Of a stretch of DNA of 64,000 nt, positions 1 to 16,700 are shown one piece after another (position 1 is the stretch's first letter; the number at the start of each line of letters is the position of its first letter). The position numbers and the translations under genes were made by a program. Under the pieces are notes generated by a model. The model was given only the letters and a program-made list of their open reading frames with translations. It was not told the origin of the DNA and searched no databases. Source of the DNA: Lachnospiraceae bacterium (GTDB lineage Bacteria > Bacillota > Clostridia > Lachnospirales > Lachnospiraceae); contig JAFSTN010000024.1 of assembly GCA_017450485.1 (NCBI GenBank), positions 1-64,000 on the forward strand, written 5' to 3'.

Positions 1-331
1 AGTAGGTCAGGCAATCAGCGTCATAGGGAAAACTGTTTATAAGGATAAGACATGGTATCTGCTACAAAATGATAATGAGAATCCAGACGAGAAGAGATTT
101 GTAAGTGGCAGTTTATTAAGTGAGAGCAAACCTAATTCAGGTAAAACAGGAGACAAAAAATCAATTGGTAATACAGGCACTACAAATCCAGCCCCAGCCC
201 CGCAGCCCAGTGACTGTGCAGTGGCAGATTGTGATGTATCTGATTGCGATTGGGGTGATTGTCTAAGCGGTATACCAAATGATTGTTTTGGTGGCAACTG
301 TTCGGCATCCTATTGTGCAGTAGCAGAATAA
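1..331 (+). CDS. SH3-domain protein with cysteine-rich C-terminal tail (5' partial), candidate rSAM substrate 1
   Basis: Open reading frame entering from the window edge (first full codon at position 2) and ending at TAA 329-331; 109 residues are visible. The first ~40 residues match the end of the SH3-like domain of the next gene (motifs VIGK, TWYLL, FVSGSLL). A Gly/Lys/Thr-rich linker and a NPAPAP spacer follow, then a 40-residue tail with seven Cys (visible residues 72, 77, 82, 87, 95, 100, 105). The intervals are 5,5,5,8,5,5, so five of six are C-X4-C. Each Cys is preceded by Asp, Asn or Tyr, and the first three repeats fit C-X3-D. The last residues are SYCAVAE. The N-terminus, and therefore any lipobox, lies outside the window. 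It is a tandem paralogue of the 347-1036 gene and a likely substrate of the 1133-2392 enzyme (inference). Confidence 0.8.
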   Translation, partial: VGQAISVIGKTVYKDKTWYLLQNDNENPDEKRFVSGSLLSESKPNSGKTGDKKSIGNTGTTNPAPAPQPSDCAVADCDVSDCDWGDCLSGIPNDCFGGNCSASYCAVAE

Positions 332-346
332 AGGATTATTACGCAT

Positions 347-1036
347 ATGAAAAGAAAAGAAATCGTATCAGCAATAGGTTTATCAATTTCATTAACGGTT
401 ACAGCTTGTGGTTCTACTGCTCCACAGCAAGAGCCTGTAGAAGAACCTGTAGCTGTCGAAGCAGAACAGCCTACAGAGGCACCAACGGAAGCACCTGAAC
501 CTAAGGAGAAAAAGGAAGAAACCCAAGAGCCAGTTGAGGACGAGGTAAAGGAACAACCGGAAGAAAAGAAAGAAGCACTTGTTGAAGAAGCATCTGAATA
601 TGATATAGAGCCTATGGACGATATAACTATGTGGGCTAAACAGGATTCCAATATAAGGAATAAACCTTATGTGGGTGGCAGTGAGGTCATAAGTTCTCTT
701 AAGACTGGACAGGAAGTCATTGTAATCGGCAAGGTTGTTTATAATGAAAAAACATGGTATGTACTGAAGCCTACAGAGGATTCAGAGGATAAAGAAACAG
801 AGTTTGTAAGCGGAAGCCTGTTAAGTACAAATAAGCCAACCAGCGGTGGCAACACTGGTCCCACCAAGCCCAGCACAGGCACAACAAATCCAGCTCCAGC
901 GCCAAGTGATTGTGCAGCATCATACTGTGAAAGTGACTGTGAAGGATATTGTAGTGCAGATTGCTTTAGTGATTGGACTCCATCCGATTGTGAAGCATCT
1001 TACTGCTCAGGTTCATACTGTGCAGCAGCAGAATAA
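347..1036 (+). CDS. Lipoprotein with SH3-like domain and Cys-rich tail, candidate rSAM substrate 2
   Basis: 229 residues. A short basic N-terminus and hydrophobic stretch end in a lipobox (VTAC, lipidated Cys21), so the protein should be exported and lipid-anchored. Residues 22-90 are a Glu/Pro-rich linker, residues ~93-160 an SH3-like wall-binding-type domain, and residues 161-186 a Thr/Gly/Pro linker. Residues 187-229 are a tail with eight Cys (189, 194, 198, 202, 206, 215, 220, 225; intervals 5,4,4,4,9,5,5). Every tail Cys follows Asp or Tyr, and the protein ends SYCAAAE, as its upstream paralogue ends SYCAVAE. The start is supported by AAAGGA upstream. It lies 15 bases after the first paralogue and upstream of a radical SAM/SPASM gene. 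Cys-rich tails beside SPASM enzymes usually mark ribosomal peptides that become thioether-crosslinked; that modification here is inference. Confidence 0.85.
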   Translation: MKRKEIVSAIGLSISLTVTACGSTAPQQEPVEEPVAVEAEQPTEAPTEAPEPKEKKEETQEPVEDEVKEQPEEKKEALVEEASEYDIEPMDDITMWAKQDSNIRNKPYVGGSEVISSLKTGQEVIVIGKVVYNEKTWYVLKPTEDSEDKETEFVSGSLLSTNKPTSGGNTGPTKPSTGTTNPAPAPSDCAASYCESDCEGYCSADCFSDWTPSDCEASYCSGSYCAAAE

Positions 1037-1084
1037 AGTTCATAACACAACTCCTGTGTTTATGGATAAAGTATTTACAAGTAG

Positions 1085-1118
1085 AAACAACCTGTCATGT
1101 TAAGTGACAGGTTGTTTT
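1085..1118 (+). terminator. Strong hairpin between the substrate genes and the rSAM gene (terminator/attenuator)
   Basis: A perfect 13-bp stem (1085-1097 with 1105-1117) with a 7-base loop, closed by a short T run, sits between the second Cys-tail gene and the maturase, whose ribosome-binding site follows at once. With no obvious separate promoter in the gap, it probably lets only part of the transcription reach the enzyme gene, giving many substrate and few enzyme transcripts. Confidence 0.75.
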
Positions 1119-1132
1119 GGGAGAAAGGCTGA

Positions 1133-2392
1133 ATGGAGCAATCATTATATAAGTATTCTCAATTCAATATAATAGTTGAGGAAACCAAGGAAAAGGTTCT
1201 ACTTTTCAATACATATAGTCTGCGATATAGATATCTGAACAGAGTGGATTTCCTAGACGTATATGGAAAGAACAATATTGACCTTGGAGATGTTCCTGTC
1301 AGCATCGCTGAAGATGGATTCATAGTCCCTGTATTATTAGATGAAATCCGGAGATTAAAAGATGATATACAGGCTCATCAGGAAAAAGCAGATTTCATGT
1401 TCGTTAGTATCTTTACAACGCTCGCCTGTAACTATTCCTGCGTATACTGTTTCGAGAGAGAACAAATATGTCAAAATGATTTCATGACCACAGATATAGC
1501 AGATGGAATCATAGCTTTCATACAAAGGCGGTACGCGGATCATGAGTTTAGCAAGCCATTAAAGATTAAATGGTTCGGTGGAGAGAGTCTACTCAATATG
1601 GATATCATAAGATACATTTCCAAGAAGCTTATCAGCAATAATATAGAATTTAGTGCTAAGCTATATACTAATGGTAGATTACTAACTAAAGAATTAGCAC
1701 AAGAATTAAAAGAGTTACACGTAACAGATGAAGTAGTAATTCCCATAGATGGTTTAGCTGATACATACTCAGCACTTAAAGGTTGTAAAGAGGAAGACTT
1801 TTATAAGACAATTCAAAATATCAAAGACGTAGAGGATATATTAAAAATAATCATTCATTTCAATGTGTCCGAAACAACAAAAGCTGATGTTGAACCCTTA
1901 ATGGAGCTATTAAGGGACGAGTATGAAATCAAATCTAACATCAAAGCAGTCAATGTAGCCCCACAGAATACTGATAAGATTACTGATGAGAACAGCATAT
2001 CTTTTGAGGATTTTCATAAAGCCTATGATATTCTGATGCAGTGCAAGGCTACTGGCATAAAAAGAACATATGGCTGTGAAGCTCGTCACCCGGAATACTA
2101 TGTAGTCGGAACCAAGGGAGAACTATATATCTGCGAGCATCTAATAGGTCAGGAACAATATGTTGTTGGCAATATCAAAGACCAATCAGGCAAAATTGAC
2201 AGGACAGCCACTATATGGGATACCAACAGGGTGATAGATGAATGTGGGGAATGCCCCTTGATACCCATTTGCTTAGGTCGATGTTCGAGCCAGAGATATA
2301 TAGATAATATAGATTGTGAAAGAGATAAGCGCATCGAGCTTACCAAGAAACGCATTTTAAGGCTGATGGCAGACAGGGAAAAGGAAGCGTGA
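1133..2392 (+). CDS. Radical SAM/SPASM domain protein, candidate Cys-tail maturase
   Basis: 419 residues. An N-terminal ~85-residue region resembles the recognition region seen ahead of the radical SAM core in peptide maturases. The CxxxCxxC [4Fe-4S]/SAM motif is at Cys99, Cys103 and Cys106 (CNYSCVYC), followed by a TIM-barrel-like core with a WFGGES glycine-rich motif. The C-terminal ~100 residues carry a complete SPASM pattern: a Cys, then GELYIC, then C-x2-C-x5-C-x3-C (ECGECPLIPICLGRC) and a last Cys, enough for two auxiliary Fe-S clusters. SPASM enzymes of this architecture install thioether or C-C crosslinks in ribosomal peptides (ranthipeptide and sactipeptide maturases) or activate sulfatases; no sulfatase is seen here. 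The adjacent Cys-tail proteins are the obvious substrates (inference). ATG at 1133 follows a GGGAGAAAGG site. Confidence 0.85.
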   Translation: MEQSLYKYSQFNIIVEETKEKVLLFNTYSLRYRYLNRVDFLDVYGKNNIDLGDVPVSIAEDGFIVPVLLDEIRRLKDDIQAHQEKADFMFVSIFTTLACNYSCVYCFEREQICQNDFMTTDIADGIIAFIQRRYADHEFSKPLKIKWFGGESLLNMDIIRYISKKLISNNIEFSAKLYTNGRLLTKELAQELKELHVTDEVVIPIDGLADTYSALKGCKEEDFYKTIQNIKDVEDILKIIIHFNVSETTKADVEPLMELLRDEYEIKSNIKAVNVAPQNTDKITDENSISFEDFHKAYDILMQCKATGIKRTYGCEARHPEYYVVGTKGELYICEHLIGQEQYVVGNIKDQSGKIDRTATIWDTNRVIDECGECPLIPICLGRCSSQRYIDNIDCERDKRIELTKKRILRLMADREKEA

Positions 2393-2510
2393 CCGGAGGG
2401 CTTGTTGGTTTGTGAATAATATATGAAGTCCTTGCAATCAGTCCCTGTTGCTCTATAATGTAGGTAGAGATAGTATACAAGCAACCTTGAAGAGAGGAGG
2501 CATGGAAGGT

Positions 2511-2789
2511 ATGACAGCTACAGCTAATGAGCAAGTGCAGAACGGGATATTTTTTTATGATACTCCGTTGAAAACAGATAGATATAAATTCCTGTATGAG
2601 CATCTTGACTGTGACAGTATCGTTGAAGCTGATGAGGATGCTGATGAAAGAATGGTAAGCGTTATAGCAAGGGCTATTGCAGGAGAGTTTAATAAAAGAC
2701 TGGAAGATCTGTTTTATGAACGTGGATATGAGGGAAGATACCTTATTATGCAGGGCATAGACAGCAAGGAGGTCAACAGCATTGACTAA
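2511..2789 (+). CDS. Small unknown protein in the rSAM locus
   Basis: I do not recognise this protein. The preferred start is ATG 2511, with GGAGG at 2496-2500 ten bases upstream, giving 92 residues. ATG 2502 is too close to that site, and an in-frame start at 2448 has none. It is soluble-looking, acidic and mostly helical, with an acidic patch EADEDADER near the middle; no membrane segment or Cys cluster is visible. It overlaps the next gene by 8 bases, so the two are probably translationally coupled and may act together. Position suggests a role in the Cys-tail system such as substrate recognition or protease partner; this is a guess from context. Confidence 0.7.
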   Translation: MTATANEQVQNGIFFYDTPLKTDRYKFLYEHLDCDSIVEADEDADERMVSVIARAIAGEFNKRLEDLFYERGYEGRYLIMQGIDSKEVNSID

Positions 2790-3285
2790 GGCTATCTATA
2801 CCGGCTCCGCCTACCACATGGCTGGAGGAAACATTGTTAAGAATAAGGTTCTGCATTTTAAGTTCGATACTAGTGCAACTTCCACCTTTGTTACATTAGG
2901 TGCACTGAATAAAGATATCAAACAAACCGAAGAGGAAATACAGAGAGTATTTAAAAGGTGCAGAGATAATGGTGTGATTGCAAACAATTATATATCCGCA
3001 TCAGGGCAGGAGATGTTTGCAGTCAAGTGTTATGCAGAAAATGTCACTATGGGAAAGATATTTCTGCCAAGGTTTTATTACTGGCTGTCACCTATGGTAG
3101 ATAACAGGAAGCTCCTGCTTGGGGATGATTTTATAAGATTCTGTGATTTTAAGCACGCTCCTGAGAGCGATATCATTATTGAGGATTTTAAGGTTGACGA
3201 TTATATCAGCTTTAACAGCAAGATAAACCCGACCGACTGTATTTCACAGAATGAGATACTTGATATGATTGCAAACGAGCAATAG
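2782..3285 (+). CDS. Retropepsin-like aspartic protease candidate
   Basis: 167 residues from TTG 2782, chosen because AAGGAGG at 2766-2772 is well spaced and no better start exists. Residues 27-33 read KFDTSAT, matching the D-[TS]-[GS]-A catalytic loop of retropepsin-fold (clan AA) proteases with catalytic Asp29. About 80 residues later LLGDDFI (112-118) matches the conserved hydrophobic-hydrophobic-Gly 'LLGxDFL' segment of the same fold. Length and order fit a single-domain bacterial retropepsin, which would act as a dimer. No signal peptide is seen, so it should be cytosolic. A protease beside a RiPP-like substrate and maturase could trim the tail or leader. The family call is by motif only; substitution of DTGA by DTSA is tolerated in the family. 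Confidence 0.55.
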   Translation: MTKAIYTGSAYHMAGGNIVKNKVLHFKFDTSATSTFVTLGALNKDIKQTEEEIQRVFKRCRDNGVIANNYISASGQEMFAVKCYAENVTMGKIFLPRFYYWLSPMVDNRKLLLGDDFIRFCDFKHAPESDIIIEDFKVDDYISFNSKINPTDCISQNEILDMIANEQ

Positions 3286-3315
3286 AAATATAATAAGACA
3301 TTATGATTGTTTGAT

Positions 3316-3343
3316 ACCCTGTCAGCATTGGCAGGGTGTTTTT
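3316..3343 (+). terminator. Rho-independent terminator ending the rSAM locus
   Basis: An 8-bp stem (ACCCTGTC with GGCAGGGT, one G-T pair) with a 6-base loop is followed by GTTTTT. It lies 30 bases after the protease stop and marks the end of the Cys-tail/rSAM transcript. Confidence 0.75.
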
Positions 3344-3501
3344 ATGTCCGTCAATCTCCCTAAAAATCAGCGCATTCAGGCGATAATCTCCTTGCATTAT
3401 CACATCTTGCTCTCCTCAATATGTCAGCGTTAGGATTGCCCTGCAATTAAGGGAATGGAATCATTTCCGTAACAGTTTGAATAATAATGGAGGGCTATGT
3501 T

Positions 3502-4083
3502 ATGTGTAAGATGAATGTGGTAGTAAACAGGGTTATGCTTGGCAACAGGGAGCTTGGCTGGGAGACTTGGAACGGCAAGAACATCGAGGAATACACCTCG
3601 AAGCAGTTGCAGGACATGATAAGGGGTGGCAAGGATAAGGTTTACGGTCTGTGCCTTGGCAAGGACGGAGAACTGGAAGCAGACGCTGAAGGCTTTTTTA
3701 CTACTTCTGTTATGGAACACAGGCACATAGGAAACTACAGACCTATGGACAGTGAGAGTCTTGTCAATATGGCCTATATCTGCTATGGAACGGATAAGGT
3801 TGAAGGCAAGACGGTTTATAAGTGCATTTCCAACAAGTTCGAGCAGGTGAACCTTACTGATGAACAGATTAAGGCTTACCTGACCTTAGGGGTGCTGACT
3901 GGTGGGGCAAGGCTTAAGGACGGTAGGATTGAGGTTGCAAAGGTTGAAGTTGTTGTGAAAAAACCGGAAGAGAAACCTGTTGAGCCTGCAAAGGATGTGA
4001 ATAAGCCTGAAGTGAAGAAAGATGATAAGAATGCTGTTACGCCTGTGACTAAGGATACAGCTAAGGGCAAAGGGGGTAAGTGA
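3502..4083 (+). CDS. Unknown element protein with charged Pro/Lys/Glu tail
   Basis: Not recognised. The start is placed at ATG 3502 because GGAGGG (3489-3494) lies seven bases before it; the longer frame from 3487 starts inside that site. 193 residues: a compact N-terminal ~150 residues rich in Gly, Tyr and Met, then a disordered Lys/Pro/Glu/Val tail (repeated KPEEKP, KPEVKK) ending GKGGK. No signal peptide or membrane segment is seen. Two bases separate it from the small membrane protein at 4086, so they form an operon. It probably belongs to the element's maintenance or accessory functions; no function can be assigned. Confidence 0.7.
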   Translation: MCKMNVVVNRVMLGNRELGWETWNGKNIEEYTSKQLQDMIRGGKDKVYGLCLGKDGELEADAEGFFTTSVMEHRHIGNYRPMDSESLVNMAYICYGTDKVEGKTVYKCISNKFEQVNLTDEQIKAYLTLGVLTGGARLKDGRIEVAKVEVVVKKPEEKPVEPAKDVNKPEVKKDDKNAVTPVTKDTAKGKGGK

Positions 4084-4085
4084 TT

Positions 4086-4232
4086 ATGGATGCAGTAGGA
4101 GTTATCATTATTATCACAGCTGTTCAGATATGGACGGTCTGCCAGCTGTATATCTTAAAGAACATTGCTCGTGTAGCAAGATGGTTCGTAAGAGTTGTGC
4201 TTAAGGACGAGGAGAATGCTGATAAGGGCTGA
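4086..4232 (+). CDS. 48-residue small membrane protein
   Basis: A short ORF starting at ATG 4086 and ending at TGA 4230-4232. A G-rich ribosome-binding site lies about nine bases upstream, in the end of the preceding gene. The protein has one hydrophobic segment at residues ~4-25 (VGVIIIITAVQIW onward) followed by a basic, amphipathic stretch and a short acidic end (KDEENADKG). It would sit in the membrane with a positively charged cytoplasmic side. A strong terminator follows, closing the two-gene unit. Function unknown; size and shape fit small holin-like or regulatory membrane peptides, but nothing specific supports either. Confidence 0.6.
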   Translation: MDAVGVIIIITAVQIWTVCQLYILKNIARVARWFVRVVLKDEENADKG

Positions 4233-4272
4233 ATTGTAGGTGCACTTACAAAAAATATCAATGAATAGTAAG

Positions 4273-4308
4273 TCCCACCTGATGAAAGACAAGTCAGGTG
4301 GGATTTTT
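4273..4308 (+). terminator. Rho-independent terminator
   Basis: A perfect 10-bp stem (TCCCACCTGA with TCAGGTGGGA) with an 11-base loop is followed by five T. It ends the 3502-4232 transcript. Confidence 0.85.
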
Positions 4309-4381
4309 CCATACATACAATAATTGCACTGATTAAGGCATACGAGTGAATTCAGATAAATTAAACGGAGGTAAGTAAGGC

Positions 4382-4636
4382 ATGAGGAAATATTGTTATC
4401 AGCAAGACCTGTCGGTAATGGATGAAAATGCAAATCCCATAAGCACACTGCGTTCAAGGATATATATTGATGCCATGAATATAGGTGAGGATGCTGTACT
4501 GGAGACGCTGGAGGAATACGGAAAGCATTTTGTTGGGCTGATAGGCAGGGATGTATTTTTAACAAAGGGTGATGATGATCTTAACCGGCTTAATGATATG
4601 CTTGGTTCGTGTGGGAATGGAGGTGTTGCGTTATGA
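4382..4636 (+). CDS. Small unknown element protein
   Basis: 84 residues from ATG 4382, preceded by GGAGG about ten bases away. A soluble alpha/beta-looking protein with no recognisable motif; the middle (GEDAVLETLEEYGKHFVGLIGRD) looks like helix followed by strand. Its last codons overlap the next gene in an ATGA arrangement, showing translational coupling. Not assigned to any family. It is probably an accessory or regulatory protein of the integrated element. Confidence 0.65.
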   Translation: MRKYCYQQDLSVMDENANPISTLRSRIYIDAMNIGEDAVLETLEEYGKHFVGLIGRDVFLTKGDDDLNRLNDMLGSCGNGGVAL

Positions 4637-4830
4637 GGGGCAACAGTTTCAGGCTTGTGCCAAAGATGATTGACAATGTCACGTTTGGCATATGGGCTGT
4701 TGATACCAGTGGATATTGTAAGCAGATAGGAGCATTCAACGTGCCTAATGACGGTCAGATGAACGACAACTTGGAAGCGGCGCAAGCAATATGTGATGTG
4801 TTAAAGAAACGGATTCGGAAGAGTGTTTAG
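4633..4830 (+). CDS. Small unknown element protein
   Basis: 65 residues. ATG 4633 is chosen over the longer frame from 4609 because GGAGG (4619-4623) is nine bases upstream and the start overlaps the previous stop (ATGA). The sequence has one compact domain (FGIWAVDTSGYCKQIGAF) and a basic C-terminal helix ending KKRIRKSV. It is coupled to the 84-residue gene and probably functions with it. No family recognised. Confidence 0.6.
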   Translation: MRGNSFRLVPKMIDNVTFGIWAVDTSGYCKQIGAFNVPNDGQMNDNLEAAQAICDVLKKRIRKSV

Positions 4831-4860
4831 CAGGACACCTGTGTTTGTATCCTCTGTATG

Positions 4861-4904
4861 AAGAGAGCGGTTGCATCGTTATGATGTTGACTGCTCTCTT
4901 TGTC
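4861..4904 (+). terminator. Hairpin, probable weak terminator
   Basis: An 11-bp stem (AAGAGAGCGGT with ACTGCTCTCTT, one G-T pair) lies 30 bases after the stop at 4830. The T run is short (TTTGT), so termination may be incomplete. Confidence 0.5.
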
Positions 4905-5410
4905 TGTAAAAATGGTATTACATAGGGAATAATTTTGTCTTGGATATTTGATTCTGGAGAGGATGACAAAGGGAAAAATATTTTTAGGGGACAATTTCGG
5001 TAGATTTTGATGGAAAATAGGGGGTATGGAAGATATATAAGGTATGAATGGTGCTGAAATTGGATACAGGCATAAAATGAACTGGTAGATAAATATAAGA
5101 AGCGTAAAGAGATTTTGTTCATAAAATATTAACAATTTTTCTCTTGACAAGCCCCAAACGAACATCATTGTAAAAACCCCATGATTCATTGATTTTTATG
5201 TTCATAAACGTCATTTTGACATGAGGACTCATTGAGCTAAATATATGAGGATTTTGAAAAACCCCAATTTGCTATGATGGTATCAGAGGAGCACAAGAAA
5301 GCACCTCAGAAAAAATCTTAATGCGCAGAGAGATTTTTATCACACACTGTTGACAGGGGATGGACGTAGCGGTACACTCCCACCCCATTTAGAAAGTGAG
5401 GATAAAAGTT
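4905..5410 (+). promoter_or_regulatory. Integrase upstream region with candidate promoters
   Basis: About 500 bases without a supported gene. Two exact TTGACA boxes occur at 5144-5149 and 5216-5221, each with only weak -10 candidates downstream (TTGTAA near 5168; AATATA near 5240). A short recurring word (AACCCCA) appears near 5176 and 5260. A stem of eight bases (AAAAATCT with AGATTTTT) lies around 5310-5338, shortly before the integrase, and could act as an attenuator or recombinase-arm site. The region fits an integrase control and arm-binding segment, but no single element is proven. Confidence 0.4.
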
Positions 5411-6757
5411 ATGATGAATAAGGTTTTATCGAATGAGCTTATGGTTTCACTCAATGGAATAGTAAACAAGGTGGATTTGGCTTATGAGGAGGTAGTGCCT
5501 GAAGTCAATGTTTACACAAATAACACCAAGACTTCATCAGGCAGAACAAGACTTACCATAGTAATAGGTCTGCATGATGCTGTAGGTTATCCTGACAGAG
5601 CAAGGTTCAGTGTTTCACTGCCTAAGGATACATCTGCCAAGGAAGTAAAGAACCAGCGTAAGATGATTGAGAGCAAATTATCTGATATTCTCAAAGAGAA
5701 GTATGATTCTTATGAGCATCATGATTTTCTGAAGTCCCTTGAATTATTTGTAGCTTCAAAAAGAGGGGAAATGAGGGACAGCAGTGTTGACAGCTATGAA
5801 TACAGAATGAAAAAGGTTGTACAGTATTTTAATCGGTTTCATTATTCTGTTGAGTCCATATCACCCAGGGTCATAAAGGAATTCATTGACTGGATGAAAA
5901 AATCAGGCAAGGGCAATAATACAGGTTTATCATACAGGACAATCAAGGATACGCATGGATTATTATATGGCTTCTTCAAAGACCAGATAAATCAGGAGGT
6001 CATAACCATTAACCCCTGTGAGCATACAGAACTTCCTCACGATAATAAGCCCAATGTGGAAGCAGATGATGTACGCTGGCTTAACCTTGATGAGTATAAT
6101 AACCTCATGGACTGGCTTGTGAAGTATAAGGATGATTACTCCTGCCCTTTTTGGAAGCTTTATGATATGATAAGGCTGACAATATATAGTGGAATGCGCA
6201 AGGAAGAAATACTTGCCTTACAGTGGGATGCTGTGGATTTTGAGGGTGGTCACTTTGAGATAAAAAGGACACGTACCAAGGGCAAGAAAATATATGATAT
6301 TGACGATGTCAAGAGCCCTGCAAGCCACAGGTCTTATCCCATTACAGAAGAGGTTGAGGACTTACTGCTCGGACTTAAGAAAAGGACTGAAGATGAGTGC
6401 AGCAACAGCAAGTATGTATTCAGCTGGTCAGAAAAAGACTCAAACCGTTGGGAAGGTCGTTCTGCAGGCAGTCCATATGACCCTGACTATATCAGTGACA
6501 TAATGAACAAGCTTATAAAGAGATACAAGAAAGAAACAGGAACTGACCTTGATGGTATTACGTTCCACAAACTCCGCCACAGCTGTTGTTCTATCCTTTA
6601 TGATAAGGGCTGGAGCCTTGGAGAGGTTCAGCAGTGGCTTGGACATGAAGATAGTGAAGTAACTAAGAGAATATATCTTCATAAGCAGGAAGCATGGAAA
6701 GACAGCAAGGCACAGGATTTGAAATTTCTTTGGAAAAAACACAATGAGGTGAACTGA
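5411..6757 (+). CDS. Tyrosine recombinase / site-specific integrase
   Basis: 448 residues from ATG 5411, nine bases after GAGG; a GTG at 5396 would start inside that site. There is an N-terminal arm-binding region, then a SAM-like core-binding domain (about residues 105-205: KSLELFVASKRGEMRDSSV onward), then the catalytic domain. The catalytic set is visible: Arg263 (SGMRKEE), H-x-L-R at His386/Arg389 (FHKLRHS), His412 (LGHED) and nucleophile Tyr422 (RIYLH). The enzyme catalyses integration and excision at the adjacent tRNA-Pro. Gene end, hairpin and tRNA 3' end lie within 26 bases, as expected for the attachment end of an integrated element. The set is complete, so the enzyme may be active. 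Confidence 0.9.
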   Translation: MMNKVLSNELMVSLNGIVNKVDLAYEEVVPEVNVYTNNTKTSSGRTRLTIVIGLHDAVGYPDRARFSVSLPKDTSAKEVKNQRKMIESKLSDILKEKYDSYEHHDFLKSLELFVASKRGEMRDSSVDSYEYRMKKVVQYFNRFHYSVESISPRVIKEFIDWMKKSGKGNNTGLSYRTIKDTHGLLYGFFKDQINQEVITINPCEHTELPHDNKPNVEADDVRWLNLDEYNNLMDWLVKYKDDYSCPFWKLYDMIRLTIYSGMRKEEILALQWDAVDFEGGHFEIKRTRTKGKKIYDIDDVKSPASHRSYPITEEVEDLLLGLKKRTEDECSNSKYVFSWSEKDSNRWEGRSAGSPYDPDYISDIMNKLIKRYKKETGTDLDGITFHKLRHSCCSILYDKGWSLGEVQQWLGHEDSEVTKRIYLHKQEAWKDSKAQDLKFLWKKHNEVN

Positions 6758-6774
6758 TTTTGTCACCTCATTGT
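6741..6774 (+). repeat. 12-bp inverted repeat spanning the integrase stop codon
   Basis: A perfect 12-bp stem (6741-6752 with 6763-6774) with a 10-base loop that contains the integrase TGA. There is no T run behind it, so it is unlikely to be a simple terminator. Sitting between the integrase and the tRNA 3' end, it may be an mRNA-stabilising end or part of the recombination site. Confidence 0.55.
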
Positions 6775-6782
6775 CACACGAG

Positions 6783-6856
6783 TCGGGGTGACGTGATTTG
6801 AACACGCGACCTCTTCGTCCCGAACGAAGCGCTCTACCAAGCTGAGCCACACCCCG
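6783..6856 (-). tRNA. tRNA-Pro (anticodon CGG)
   Basis: A 74-base cloverleaf read on the minus strand. The acceptor is CGGGGTG paired with CACCCCG plus discriminator A; the anticodon stem CTTCG/CGAAG encloses loop TTCGGGA, giving anticodon CGG (reads CCG). The T-arm GTTCAAATC is intact, and CCA is not encoded. Its 3' end faces the integrase, so this gene is the attachment site of the element. A promoter-like TTGATT-16-TATAAT lies just upstream on the same strand. Confidence 0.93.
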
Positions 6857-6872
6857 AATTGTTGATTTTATG

Positions 6873-6908
6873 GGCTTTCCAAGAGTTTTGGGAAGCCTTT
6901 TCTTTTTT
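6873..6908 (+). terminator. Plus-strand terminator beyond the tRNA
   Basis: An 8-bp stem (GGCTTTCC with GGGAAGCC, one G-T pair), 9-base loop and a run of eleven T/C bases. It would stop plus-strand transcription leaving the element before it crosses into the chromosome. Confidence 0.7.
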
Positions 6909-6910
6909 CA

Positions 6911-6938
6911 ATTATAGCACCGATATTGATGAAATCAA
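6911..6938 (-). promoter_or_regulatory. Promoter for tRNA-Pro
   Basis: On the minus strand TTGATT and TATAAT are separated by 16 bases and lie about 55 bases before the tRNA 5' end. The intact tRNA therefore seems to have its own promoter, separate from the two broken copies upstream. Confidence 0.55.
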
Positions 6939-6953
6939 TGCTGTGCCATTTAA

Positions 6954-6993
6954 GTCCCGAACGTAGCGCTCTACCAAACTGAGCCACGCCCCG
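6954..6993 (-). pseudogene. 5' half of a tRNA-Pro, broken after the anticodon loop
   Basis: Minus-strand sequence matches the tRNA-Pro 5' end (CGGGGCGTGGCTCAG), D-arm and 5' anticodon stem up to TTCGGGAC; the match then stops. The anticodon stem here is CTACG rather than CTTCG, so it comes from a variant copy. There is no 3' half within reach, so it cannot make a tRNA. The break at the anticodon loop is where many tyrosine recombinases cut. Confidence 0.8.
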
Positions 6994-7178: not shown

Positions 7179-8006
7179 TTACCAATCGGAATCCCAGTCC
7201 GTTCCGCCCGAATCCCAGTCGGACCCGGAGTCCCAATCCCAATCGGAGTCGGATCCTGAATCATAGTCCGAATCGGATGAAGAGTGAGTCTCTTCATAGT
7301 AAACGCTGTCATCCCAGTCCGTTGCATTCATGTCCGTAGTCCAGTTATCGGACATATAGTAATCATCATATGATTCGGTTATTGCGCTTACGCCGGGATC
7401 ATATGTATCTGTCGTATACCAGTCATTGTAATAGTCATCGTAGTAATACCAGTTATTGTCATAGTTATAATATACGACATTATTATAGTTGTAATATCCG
7501 TCATGCTTATGACTGGCATAATTTAAGCCTACTGTCGCTGCCAGGATTGCTACGAATATGCCAAAACCCAATCTGGAACTCATATCGGAGAGAAAACTCG
7601 ATCTGCGACGCGACCCGGTATTACCGTGATTGCCCTGATTGGCCTTTTGATGAACAATCTCATCCTTGAGTTTCTGATACAGCTCGTTTACGGCATATTC
7701 CTCATCCATACCGCGGTATCTGACTGCACGGCTTCCGTCACCTTTATTCTTATAGACCACGTATTCCCCGCTCTGCGAATCCTTATATATTCCGAAAGCC
7801 TGCGGTCCCTGATGATCTATGCCGATAAAAAATCGCGTAGTCTCATAAGGCGGCAGATTACGATCCCTGTACCACTGCTGAAGCTCGGCTATGGTCTTTG
7901 GAGCGCCCTTTACCTGCTTATGTGAAGGATTCGGAGCTTCACAATACGGGCACTGGGGGAGCGTATCTTCATATGTATTATCACAATAATCACATTTGAT
8001 CTTCAT
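7179..8006 (-). CDS. Zinc-ribbon membrane protein with Tyr/Asp-rich tail
   Basis: 275 residues. The N-terminus is a zinc ribbon (CDYC near residue 5, CPYC near residue 19). A small folded region follows (~35-120: RDRNLPPYETTRFFIGIDHQG onward), then a basic linker and one membrane segment (~145-165: LGFGIFVAILAATVGLNYA). The rest is low-complexity: Tyr/Asn/Asp repeats, then repeated Asp-Ser-Gly-Trp units to the C-terminus. One membrane pass would place the cytoplasmic zinc ribbon and the acidic tail on opposite sides. The tail looks disordered and could bind cations or surface polymers. The ATG lies two bases after the panE stop, so they are co-transcribed. Function unknown. Confidence 0.75.
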   Translation of the reverse strand: MKIKCDYCDNTYEDTLPQCPYCEAPNPSHKQVKGAPKTIAELQQWYRDRNLPPYETTRFFIGIDHQGPQAFGIYKDSQSGEYVVYKNKGDGSRAVRYRGMDEEYAVNELYQKLKDEIVHQKANQGNHGNTGSRRRSSFLSDMSSRLGFGIFVAILAATVGLNYASHKHDGYYNYNNVVYYNYDNNWYYYDDYYNDWYTTDTYDPGVSAITESYDDYYMSDNWTTDMNATDWDDSVYYEETHSSSDSDYDSGSDSDWDWDSGSDWDSGGTDWDSDW

Positions 8007-14890: not shown

Positions 14891-16700
14891 CCTTTGCGAG
14901 ATTTCGCGGCTTATCTACATCAAATCCCTTATCGCTGGATACGTAATATGCCAGCAGCTGTAATGCGACCGAAGCCGGAAATACCATCAGCTCGTCCGGA
15001 AGATTGGGCAATACAAAGGTATCAAACTCTCTAGTACTCTGCTGCATCAGATCGGCTTTGATGAAAAGTGCTATCTGAGCTCCTCTGGACTTGACTTCCC
15101 GGATATTGGACAACTCCTTACTCATCAGTCTGGTCTGGGTAACCACCGCAACTACGGGGGTATTATCGGTGATCAGTGCGATGGGGCCGTGCTTGAGTTC
15201 TCCGGATGCATAAGCCTCAGAGTGAATATAGGATACCTCTTTCAGCTTAAGCGATCCCTCCTGAAGGATCGAATAATCCAGTCCTCTGCCTATCATAAAC
15301 AGGTCTTTGGCCTCGAGAACCCCTCTGGCTATGACATGGATCGCATTCTTTTCATCCAAAACACTGCCTATTACTTCGGGAACTCTCTTCAGGTTACGGA
15401 TGCACTCACGAACCTCATCATCATTCATAATGCCTCTGATATGAGCCATCTTATACACCAGCAGATAGAAGATCGACAGCTGGGTTGTATATGCCTTGGT
15501 ACTGGCAACCGCTATCTCCGGACCGGCATTGGTATATAATACATAGTCACTCTCCCGGGCGATCGACGATCCCTTGACATTGATGATCGCCAGGCTCTTT
15601 GCGCCTTTACGTCTGGCATATTTAAGCGCTTCGAGAGTATCTATGGTCTCACCGGACTGGGATACCGCTATCACGAGAGTCTTCTCATCTATAACAGGGT
15701 CGGAATACATGAATTCCGAAGCCAGTTCAACCTCAATATGCATATTCAGACGGGTCTTGACCAGCGACTGGAACACCAGTCCGGCATGCATTGCGGTACC
15801 GCAGGCCACTACACATATCCTCTCACACTCGGTAAAGAGGGAATCCGGGATCTGATCGGCCTCAAAGTTTGGAATGCCCGATTTGGTCCTGCCGGCTATG
15901 GTATCTCTGATAGCCTTGGGCTGCTCCATGATCTCCTTTTCCATATAGAAAGGATAGCCGTTCTTCTCGGCACTGTTCTTCTCCCAGCTCATGGTGAGGT
16001 ACTCGGGCTGCATCTCCTTACCGTCCAGACTCCACATGGTTATGCTGTCTTTATGGAGCTCGACGATGGTATACTCGGGAACCACGAAATACTGATCCGT
16101 AAACTGACACAGCGCTGTCAGGTCGGAAGCGAGCATGGCTCCCTCTTCACTGAGGGTGGCCACTATGGGACTGACATTCCTGATCGAATAGATCACGTCC
16201 GGAATATCACCGAACATTATTACCAGGGCAAAAGTACCCCTTAACCTCTTAACCGCCTTGGTTATGGCTTTCTTCGGATCATGAGTCTCATTGTAGTAAT
16301 AGTTCAGAACAGCGGCGGCAACCTCAGTATCGGTCTCGGACTTAAGAGATCCCTCCAGATTGAACTCGTCGATCAGATCCTTATAGTTCTCTATGATACC
16401 GTTATGAACCACAGTCACGTTACCCTGACTGTGCGGATGGGCATTTGCATCGCATACTCCGCCATGCGTGGCCCATCTGGTATGCCCTATTCCGCAGGTG
16501 GAATCGATGGTCTTGCTCTCGCATACCTTCTCCAGGTCCTTGACCCTGCCGGCACATTTGTATACATCCGTCCGGTTCAGTTTGGCATTGGTAACAGCCA
16601 TCCCGGCACTGTCATATCCTCTGTACTCCAGCGTGGTCAGTGCATCGATGATGATGGGCTCTACCTGTTTCTTACCGTTATATCCGATTATTCCGCACAT
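14874..16700 (-). CDS. glmS: Glutamine--fructose-6-phosphate aminotransferase (isomerizing)
   Basis: 608 residues, the standard length. The N-terminal glutamine amidotransferase domain begins MCGIIGYNG with nucleophile Cys2; two SIS sugar-isomerase domains follow (AVSQSGETIDT, STKAYTTQ, ELKHGPIALI) and the end is KPRNLAKVVTVE. It makes glucosamine-6-phosphate, the first committed precursor of peptidoglycan amino sugars. Directly upstream lies pgi, which supplies or competes for the same fructose-6-phosphate. I saw no glmS ribozyme in the short 18-base gap ahead of it. Confidence 0.97.
   Translation of the reverse strand: MCGIIGYNGKKQVEPIIIDALTTLEYRGYDSAGMAVTNAKLNRTDVYKCAGRVKDLEKVCESKTIDSTCGIGHTRWATHGGVCDANAHPHSQGNVTVVHNGIIENYKDLIDEFNLEGSLKSETDTEVAAAVLNYYYNETHDPKKAITKAVKRLRGTFALVIMFGDIPDVIYSIRNVSPIVATLSEEGAMLASDLTALCQFTDQYFVVPEYTIVELHKDSITMWSLDGKEMQPEYLTMSWEKNSAEKNGYPFYMEKEIMEQPKAIRDTIAGRTKSGIPNFEADQIPDSLFTECERICVVACGTAMHAGLVFQSLVKTRLNMHIEVELASEFMYSDPVIDEKTLVIAVSQSGETIDTLEALKYARRKGAKSLAIINVKGSSIARESDYVLYTNAGPEIAVASTKAYTTQLSIFYLLVYKMAHIRGIMNDDEVRECIRNLKRVPEVIGSVLDEKNAIHVIARGVLEAKDLFMIGRGLDYSILQEGSLKLKEVSYIHSEAYASGELKHGPIALITDNTPVVAVVTQTRLMSKELSNIREVKSRGAQIALFIKADLMQQSTREFDTFVLPNLPDELMVFPASVALQLLAYYVSSDKGFDVDKPRNLAKVVTVE

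What the first reader, a model, noticed from the sequence alone, without database searches (positions are those of the whole stretch)
1..3285. Candidate new RiPP-like system: SH3 proteins with Cys-rich tails, SPASM enzyme and retropepsin-like protease
The sequence shows two tandem proteins with SH3-like domains and periodic Cys tails, then a radical SAM enzyme with a full SPASM pattern, then a small coupled protein and a DTSA/LLGDD retropepsin-like protein, on an integrated element. Established: SPASM maturases beside Cys-repeat peptides make thioether-linked ribosomal peptides (ranthipeptides such as freyrasin, SCIFF peptides). Unusual here: the modifiable segment is the tail of a ~230-residue lipoprotein instead of a short leader-core peptide, and a retropepsin candidate is in the operon. 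Inference: the tail is crosslinked to make a rigid surface display or a releasable toxin/signal.
Basis: partly seen in the sequence, partly recalled or inferred. Interest (0 to 1): 0.87.

Follow-up and report, generated by a model that had tools for sequence, protein, structure and literature searches.

The report
Cysteine-tailed lipoproteins with radical-SAM maturase
A rumen bacterium's mobile element encodes surface lipoproteins that end in a variable cysteine-rich tail, next to a dedicated radical-SAM enzyme that probably staples that tail, so a crosslinking chemistry known from small peptides may be used here to build the tip of a whole surface protein.

Summary
The core observation is real. 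Two tandem proteins (229 aa when complete) have a lipobox, an acidic stalk, an SH3 domain and a 40-43-residue Cys tail. A hairpin and a 419-aa radical SAM enzyme with a complete SPASM Cys set follow. Orthologous enzymes (52-70% identical) were found in eight other Lachnospiraceae assemblies. All nine loci (window copy counted once) carry an SH3 protein with a Cys tail ending in Ala-Glu. Among 397 family genomes, enzyme orthologue and full-length tail protein occur in the same three.

Of 82 tail cysteines, 52 follow Asp and 26 an aromatic residue, never matched in 2000 shuffles. Best reading: the enzyme installs thioether crosslinks in the tail, which stays on the exported lipoprotein as a rigid display tip. 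The modification itself is untested.

The 95-aa and retropepsin-like proteins are probably not part of it: neither has a detectable relative in the other eight loci.

The enzyme scores below the cut-offs of all listed NCBIfam maturase families. The closest annotated kind is CefA/TIGR04463 (a 679-aa lectin with a Cys tail). A separate clade of phage maturases lies directly behind tail-type genes in 8 of 8 contigs, 7 with Cys-rich tips: a likely independent parallel.

The parts
2..331 (+). Tail lipoprotein A, 5' end cut by the contig start (complete 229-aa form in L019:6510-7199, lipobox Cys 20)
209..328 (+). Cys tail of protein A, 40 aa, 7 Cys, ends C-A-V-A-E
347..1036 (+). Tail lipoprotein B, 229 aa: signal peptide with lipobox VTAC (Cys 21), acidic stalk, SH3 domain, Gly/Pro linker, Cys tail
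650..826 (+). SH3_3 domain of protein B (residues 102-160)
905..1033 (+). Cys tail of protein B, 43 aa, 8 Cys, no Lys/Arg, ends C-A-A-A-E
1085..1117 (+). Hairpin between substrate gene and enzyme gene (-19.6 kcal/mol, z -5.6); possible attenuating terminator; not listed by the terminator pattern scan; hairpins also lie behind the tail gene in L021 and L020 (the two others folded)
1133..2392 (+). Radical SAM/SPASM maturase, 419 aa
5408..6757 (+). Tyrosine integrase of the element (context)
6782..6856 (-). tRNA-Pro (cgg) beside the integrase, probable element boundary (context)
   Evidence: no second copy of its 3' end found

Best explanation
A protein-scale, RiPP-like modification system. The SPASM maturase acts in the cytoplasm on the C-terminal Cys tail of the newly made lipoprotein and forms several thioether (ranthionine-type) links from tail Cys to neighbouring residues; the Asp/aromatic residue in front of the next Cys, or the final Glu, is the most likely acceptor. 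The protein is then exported by Sec, lipidated at the lipobox Cys and anchored. Stalk plus SH3 domain hold the stapled, acidic tail out at or beyond the cell wall, where it works as a variable recognition or adhesion tip. Nothing is cleaved off. Shown: gene pairing, domain layout, lipobox, tail pattern, complete SPASM Cys set, tails that vary separately from scaffold and enzyme. Inferred: that the tail is the substrate (about 0.8), that the product is thioether (about 0.65), that the function is recognition or adhesion (about 0.4).
For: Pairing: enzyme orthologues in 9 loci (L019 is the window's twin), each with a family lipoprotein on the same strand within about 4 kb, ending in Ala-Glu. In 397 family genomes, enzyme hits above 590 bits and full-length tail-protein hits (model 1-235) both fall in exactly G000, G193 and G233; seven further genomes have weaker enzyme relatives (143.8 bits or less). 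SH3 lipoproteins in five other genomes match only stalk and SH3 (to model position 133-193); three end in other modules (by eye: phosphodiester glycosidase, SGNH hydrolase, CAP-like), one in a Pro/Gly stretch, one is cut by its contig. Tail pattern: 82 Cys in 11 tails, 52 after Asp (13.8 expected), 26 after Tyr/Phe/Trp/His (9.9 expected), 0 of 2000 shuffles each; 7 of 11 tails end C-x3-E; no Lys/Arg in 10 of 11. No short Cys-rich ORF recurs within 3 kb of the enzyme as another candidate substrate. Enzyme: complete SPASM; nearest models are maturases of Cys-rich RiPPs (TIGR04463, CefB, geopeptide, Clo7bot, PapB, SCIFF); nearest solved structure is 5wgg, named only 'Radical SAM domain protein' there and recalled as CteB, a ranthipeptide synthase. 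Chemistry precedent: PapB links Cys-X3-Asp/Glu and accepts Cys-Xn-Asp with n=0-6 (PMC9413430, passages); QhpD makes S-Cbeta/S-Cgamma links in quinohemoprotein amine dehydrogenase (PMC8326336, passages). Same layout in CefA/TIGR04463.
Against: No chemistry is shown. Asp or an aromatic sits before Cys, whereas PapB did not act on an Asp-before-Cys peptide. The +4 Asp/Glu excess is modest (27 vs 18.1 expected) and partly follows from the Cys spacing. The tails are related to one another, so the shuffles overstate independence. L026 has only 4 tail Cys and has lost the P-S-D-C start. L023 has no lipobox. In L026, L020, L023 and L027 the tail gene lies 1.8-3.9 kb from the enzyme.
Confidence: 0.6

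Rival explanations
1. The tail is modified by the enzyme but serves as a tethered antagonistic or signalling peptide (contact-dependent bacteriocin or exclusion factor of the element), perhaps released by a protease.
For: Located on mobile elements (integrases in L019, L021, L023, L027; resolvase family in L019, L020, L021); tails vary separately from the scaffold; related SPASM families include bacteriocin-like ones (model names). ABC-transporter genes lie in L023 and L024.
Against: No immunity, exporter or protease family recurs beside the pair; only the integrase reaches 4 of 9 loci. The retropepsin-like gene is, among the nine loci, detectable only in this one.
Confidence: 0.2
2. The Cys/Asp tails are unmodified metal-binding or disulfide-forming tips, and the enzyme acts on something else in the element.
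For: Acidic, Cys-rich tails almost free of Lys/Arg would bind metals (inference).
Against: Enzyme and tail protein are together in 9 of 9 loci and in the same 3 of 397 genomes; no other candidate substrate recurs.
Confidence: 0.12
3. The enzyme makes another bond: Cys to an aromatic residue, or C-C/C-O links between Asp/Tyr/Trp residues, not a ranthionine.
For: Aromatics (His counted) stand in place of Asp in front of Cys at 26 of 82 sites; radical SAM RiPP enzymes also make C-C and C-O links (PMC8326336, passages).
Against: The nearest model families are those of Cys-rich peptides.
Confidence: 0.2

Closest known systems
CefA (NF038108) with TIGR04463/CefB maturase, Methylomagnum ishizawai plasmid NZ_AP019784.1
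   Same: Large protein with N-terminal binding domains (ricin-type lectin, crystallin) and a C-terminal Cys-repeat tail, directly before a SPASM maturase; TIGR04463 and CefB are the best models for the window enzyme
   Different: Window enzyme 132.7/124.7 bits against cut-offs 525/600; none of 8 tail proteins tested (of 11) matches the CefA model at E<=5; tail pattern there is A-C-G-A-D (Asp at +3), here D/aromatic-C; no SH3 scaffold; a C-methyltransferase-type rSAM follows there
Ranthipeptides: freyrasin/PapB, SCIFF/CteB
   Same: SPASM enzyme and Cys near Asp/Glu (PMC9413430 and PMC8326336, passages)
   Different: Short leader-core peptides there; window enzyme 93.3 vs 340 (PapB) and 77.3 vs 425 bits (SCIFF); bond type unknown here
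Clo7bot peptides with ctpM (NZ_CP094934.1)
   Same: Cys-rich substrates and a related maturase, several substrate genes before the enzyme
   Different: 41-50-aa annotated peptides and a neighbouring ABC transporter; 112.3 vs 600 bits
QhpD and anaerobic sulfatase maturases
   Same: SPASM-type enzymes acting on whole proteins (QhpD and anSME: PMC8326336, passages; sulfatase export after modification is recalled)
   Different: Other substrates; sulfatase-maturase model 49.3 vs 349.45 bits, QhpD-type model TIGR03906 54.7 vs 453 bits
TIGR04133/TIGR04134 rSAM with lipoprotein (annotation families)
   Same: By model name, an rSAM/SPASM protein paired with a lipoprotein
   Different: TIGR04133 is not among the 25 best of 48 models listed for the window enzyme; no TIGR04134 match in 8 tail proteins at E<=5 nor in 11 genomes (control silent)
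Phage tail-protein plus rSAM/SPASM pairs found here
   Same: C-terminal tip of a large surface protein, rich in Cys in 7 of 8 contigs, directly before a SPASM enzyme
   Different: Separate 100/100 clade (6 of 8 phage enzymes in the tree); Gly/Ser/Asp-rich tips without the D/aromatic-Cys rule

Membership tests
Radical SAM/SPASM enzymes | CX3CX2C and two auxiliary-cluster Cys sets | tested here: met
   Invariant in 9 of 9 orthologues; PF04055 E 2.7e-12; TIGR04085 49.8 bits over cut-off 27. PF13186 SPASM itself is under its cut-off, 15.2 vs 21.5
RiPP (classical) | Short leader-core precursor whose core is cleaved off and exported | tested here: not met
   Precursors 229-562 aa with lipobox in 10 of 11 (9 by pattern, L026 by eye); no recurring protease or exporter within the held flanks
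Ranthipeptide | Cys S to non-alpha carbon thioether | not testable with these tools
   Needs MS/NMR
Ranthipeptide | Maturase passes PapB or SCIFF model cut-off | tested here: not met
   93.3 vs 340; 77.3 vs 425 bits
CefA/CefB/TIGR04463 | Maturase passes TIGR04463 or NF038107 cut-off | tested here: not met
   132.7 vs 525; 124.7 vs 600 bits
CefA/CefB/TIGR04463 | Precursor passes NF038108 (Cys every fifth) | tested here: not met
   0 of 8 tail proteins tested (of 11) at E<=5; positive control P0018 60.7 bits over 30
CefA/CefB/TIGR04463 | Large N-terminal part plus C-terminal Cys tail beside SPASM enzyme (layout, seen in one CefA locus) | tested here: met
Anaerobic sulfatase maturase | Passes TIGR03942 | tested here: not met
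   49.3 vs 349.45 bits
Retropepsin-like protease (2782-3285) | Match to an aspartyl protease family | tested here: inconclusive
   PF13975 E 0.12, 13.4 vs 28.2 bits; best PDB hit E 0.2, an amylase; DTSA and LLGDD present in the sequence
RRE-containing maturase | N-terminal winged-helix RRE | not tested
   Structure prediction off

The most novel reading that the evidence does not exclude
Radical SAM/SPASM stapling of the C-terminal tip is a recurrent way to build rigid recognition tips on large surface proteins: it arose separately on cell-surface SH3 lipoproteins of mobile elements, on lectin-type CefA proteins, and on phage tail spikes whose maturase gene follows the spike gene. In the lipoprotein branch, tail cassettes are swapped between elements independently of the scaffold and the enzyme.
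Probability: 0.35. Interest if true: 0.88.

Novelty: new variant of a known kind. Interest (0 to 1): 0.66.

Why it matters
If true, RiPP-type radical crosslinking is not only for small secreted peptides: it is also a way to finish the exposed end of a full-size surface protein, kept on the protein with no leader removal. It gives nine concrete enzyme/substrate loci for test, a D/aromatic-Cys code that differs from the Cys-X3-Asp of freyrasin, natural tail variants for binder engineering, and, through the phage contigs, a directly testable claim that some phage tail proteins carry enzyme-made crosslinks.

Tried and rejected
Sulfatase maturase or another named SPASM family: rejected by NCBIfam scores. 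The 95-aa and retropepsin-like genes as parts: rejected; the L020 DTG protein (14974-15594) is not detectably related to the window one and has no Pfam match. Orthologues in the plasmid or phage-record collections: none; all hits 21-27% identity. TIGR04463 and CefB in the same phylum: no hit in 199 and 149 genomes at 1e-100 and 1e-80 (TIGR04463 rang in 2 of 14 controls, under its cut-off; the CefB control was silent). TIGR04134: 0 of 11 genomes, control silent. A short Cys-rich peptide as the true substrate: no recurring ORF of 20-90 aa with 4 or more Cys within 3 kb on the enzyme's strand; a few scattered ones, 0-4 per locus. Attachment site: no second copy of the tRNA 3' end; one search used a wrong, tRNA-like pattern and found nothing. 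Separate evolution rests on few pairs: SH3 and enzyme identities are also uncorrelated (Spearman -0.05, 55 pairs), so the tail is not alone in this. More distant viral relatives do not show the tail-protein pairing: L052 and L053 (preceding proteins with 0 to 4 Cys in the last 60) and L069 and L070 (L069 has a 70-aa Cys-rich ORF 1.6 kb downstream). Two more expansions of the phage set gave no new close contig. Papers: searches gave 0, 0, 0, 1 (unrelated) and 0 papers. Searches listed 23 (of 24), 3, 19 and 4 papers; I judged these from titles and abstract starts only, apart from passages of PMC9413430, PMC11002830, PMC8326336 and PMC8939145. I saw no report of this pairing in them; subscription papers are not covered.

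Full report
What is there. The window starts at base 1 of contig C9 of its assembly, so the first gene is cut. A public contig, JAFPVA010000016.1 (Butyrivibrio sp. RGIG1500, goat abomasum; L019), is identical to window 1-6962 without a mismatch and gives the complete first protein, 229 aa. Genes in order: two lipoproteins of 229 aa (2-331 cut; 347-1036), a 419-aa radical SAM/SPASM enzyme (1133-2392), a 95-aa protein (2502-2789) and a 167-aa DTSA protein (2782-3285). An integrase (5408-6757, Pfam E 4e-25) lies next to tRNA-Pro at 6782-6856; no second attachment copy was found.

The proteins. The tail proteins have a signal peptide, a lipobox, an acidic stalk, an SH3 domain (PF08239 in 11 of 11 members at E<=0.01), a linker and a Cys tail. 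A lipobox pattern matched 9 of 11; L026 has LMGC by eye and L023 has none. Tails are 40-60 aa with 4-12 Cys, no Lys/Arg in 10 of 11, and all 11 end in Ala-Glu. Among 82 Cys, 52 follow Asp (13.8 expected), 26 follow Tyr/Phe/Trp/His (9.9 expected) and 4 follow anything else; none of 2000 within-tail shuffles reached either value. Leaving out two near-duplicate tails (L022, L027) changes little: 43 and 21 of 68, again 0 of 2000. The tails are related, so this is not 82 independent events. Against a simple freyrasin-like code: Asp/Glu at +4 is only modestly in excess (27 vs 18.1).

The enzyme. CX3CX2C and the SPASM Cys set are invariant in 9 of 9 orthologues. The best NCBIfam models are maturases of Cys-rich peptides: TIGR04463 132.7, CefB 124.7, geopeptide 122.8, Clo7bot 112.3, PapB 93.3, SCIFF 77.3 bits, all far below their cut-offs (525, 600, 400, 600, 340, 425). 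These six models match all nine members. The nearest solved structure is 5wgg (E 4e-21), named there only 'Radical SAM domain protein'; that it is CteB is recalled.

Distribution. One scan of the 84,980-species genome collection, which sees only contigs holding one of two short conserved patterns, gave ten loci: nine orthologues (52-100% identity, all titled Lachnospiraceae or Butyrivibrio; goat, sheep, rabbit by name where given; L019 is the window's twin) and one remote Lentisphaerae hit (29%, partial), which I dropped from the counts. The number is therefore a lower bound. All nine orthologous loci hold a family lipoprotein on the same strand; the window/L019 and L021 have two, L022 two almost identical copies. 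It ends 80-540 bp upstream of the enzyme in L019, L021, L022 and L024; 1.4-3.4 kb upstream in L025 (with a second maturase between), L026 and L027; and it lies 1.9-3.9 kb downstream in L023 and L020. In 397 family genomes, enzyme orthologues (above 590 bits) are in G000, G193 and G233; seven more genomes have weaker relatives at 143.8 bits or less. Full-length tail-protein hits (model 1-235) are in the same three. Five other genomes have SH3 lipoproteins that match only to model position 133-193: read through, G175, G349 and G184 end in other modules (by eye phosphodiester glycosidase-, SGNH-hydrolase- and CAP-like), G228 in a Pro/Gly stretch, and G143 is cut by its contig. So the tail stands where other relatives carry a different C-terminal module. 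In 392 genomes drawn from the order (overlapping that set) no further hit reached 200 bits.

What does not belong. The 95-aa protein and the DTSA protein have no blastp relative in the other eight loci at E 1e-4. In 220 family genomes each, the 95-aa protein was found only in the window's own genome; the DTSA protein has a 32% relative elsewhere in its own genome and two weak ones in G029. Its protease assignment is weak (PF13975 E 0.12; best PDB hit E 0.2). In the held flanks (up to 8 kb each side) the only other gene family seen in more than 3 of 9 loci is the tyrosine integrase, in L019, L021, L023 and L027, which supports mobile elements. ABC-transporter genes occur singly in L023 and L024. 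No short Cys-rich ORF recurs within 3 kb.

Evolution. The nine enzymes form one clade (100/100), with the second enzymes of L025 and L027 as sisters (99/94) and G012's enzyme next (96/92, long branch). G012's enzyme has a 40-aa Cys-rich peptide ORF next to it (L017:1910-2032), which hints, no more, that a short-peptide system came first. Window protein B and the L027 protein share 88% of the tail (182 nt at 87% identity) but 41% of SH3 and 51% of the enzyme; L022 and L024 share 96-97% of enzyme and SH3 but 77% of the tail. Tail, SH3 and enzyme identities are not correlated over 55 pairs, which fits exchange of parts between elements; SH3 and enzyme are uncorrelated too.

A parallel in phages. 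Scans with this enzyme and then with its phage relatives gave eight IMG/VR contigs with a close group of maturases (27-43% identical to the window's in the aligned parts of L014, L029 and L030). In 8 of 8 the gene directly before it encodes a larger protein of 431-867 aa. Seven match PF06605 Prophage_tail above its cut-off; L014's does not and has only weak PHROG matches, one of them 'tail'. The last 110 residues hold 6-15 Cys in 7 of 8, and an Asp/Ser/Gly repeat with 2 Cys in L014. These eight are not fully independent: L046 and L047 have nearly the same tip, and three contigs come from one sample number. Six of the eight enzymes were put in the tree and form a separate 100/100 clade; the deep forks are weak (61/80), so an independent origin of the pairing is likely, not shown. 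Four more distant viral hits (L052, L053, L069, L070) lack it.

Mechanism proposed. The maturase staples the tail in the cytoplasm, by thioether links as PapB does (Cys-X3-Asp/Glu, n = 0-6 tolerated, Asp-before-Cys not; PMC9413430, passages). The protein is exported and lipidated, and SH3 and stalk carry a rigid acidic tip outward. A hairpin after the tail gene (-19.6 kcal/mol, z -5.6; also L021 and L020) may give more substrate than enzyme; the simple terminator scan did not list it. Recognition or adhesion is favoured over a released toxin because nothing for release, export or immunity recurs and because the look-alikes sit on a lectin (CefA) and on phage tail proteins. This last step is inference.

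Novelty. CefA, a 679-aa lectin with a Cys-every-fifth tail before a TIGR04463 maturase, is already annotated, so a large Cys-tailed substrate is not wholly new; 'Cys-every-fifth' occurs in none of the papers searched. New here as far as these searches show: the enzyme clade, the SH3-lipoprotein scaffold on mobile elements, the D/aromatic-Cys rule, the conserved Ala-Glu end, and the phage tail-protein parallel. Verdict: new variant of a known kind, with the chemistry still to be shown.

Noticed in passing
L029:3810-7399, L030/L049, L046, L047, L048, L050, L051, L014 (IMG/VR): Phage tail-type genes (7 of 8 match PF06605), 7 of 8 with Cys-rich C-terminal tips, followed directly by a SPASM maturase in 8 of 8 contigs; a separate enzyme clade. 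No report seen in the listings of searches.
   Followed up: partly
L014:2525-3820: Protein with a C-terminal Asp/Ser/Gly repeat (SDGES, DGDT) and only 2 Cys in the last 110 residues, before an rSAM cut by the contig end: a different crosslink chemistry?
   Followed up: no
L027:7995-10493 and L025:6686-9275: Second, diverged maturase: fused in one 853-aa ORF in L027, tandem separate gene in L025.
   Followed up: partly
L022:176-4620: Two almost identical tail lipoproteins with a 93-aa remnant of a maturase start between them: recent tandem duplication (or assembly effect).
   Followed up: no
L017:1910-3321 (G012): Sister-lineage maturase with a 40-aa Cys-rich peptide ORF next to it.
   Followed up: no
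L018:7717-10295 (G272): Maturase near a 250-aa protein with a Cys-pair-rich N-terminus, beside genes that look like a type III CRISPR module (by eye).
   Followed up: no
L028:5607-7276 (Lentisphaerae): rSAM/SPASM-like gene followed by a 136-aa protein with Cys-rich repeats.
   Followed up: no
G175, G228, G349, G184 (L041, L042, L043, L040): Same acidic stalk and SH3 scaffold carrying other C-terminal modules: a modular surface scaffold in this family.
   Followed up: partly
L023:12213-12353 and L027:4702-4840: About 140 bp stretch, 83% identical, behind the tail gene in two otherwise different loci.
   Followed up: no
window 7179-8006, minus strand: 275-aa protein with an Asp/Ser/Trp-rich C-terminal repeat (DSGSDWDSGGTDWDSDW), beyond the tRNA-Pro.
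   Followed up: no
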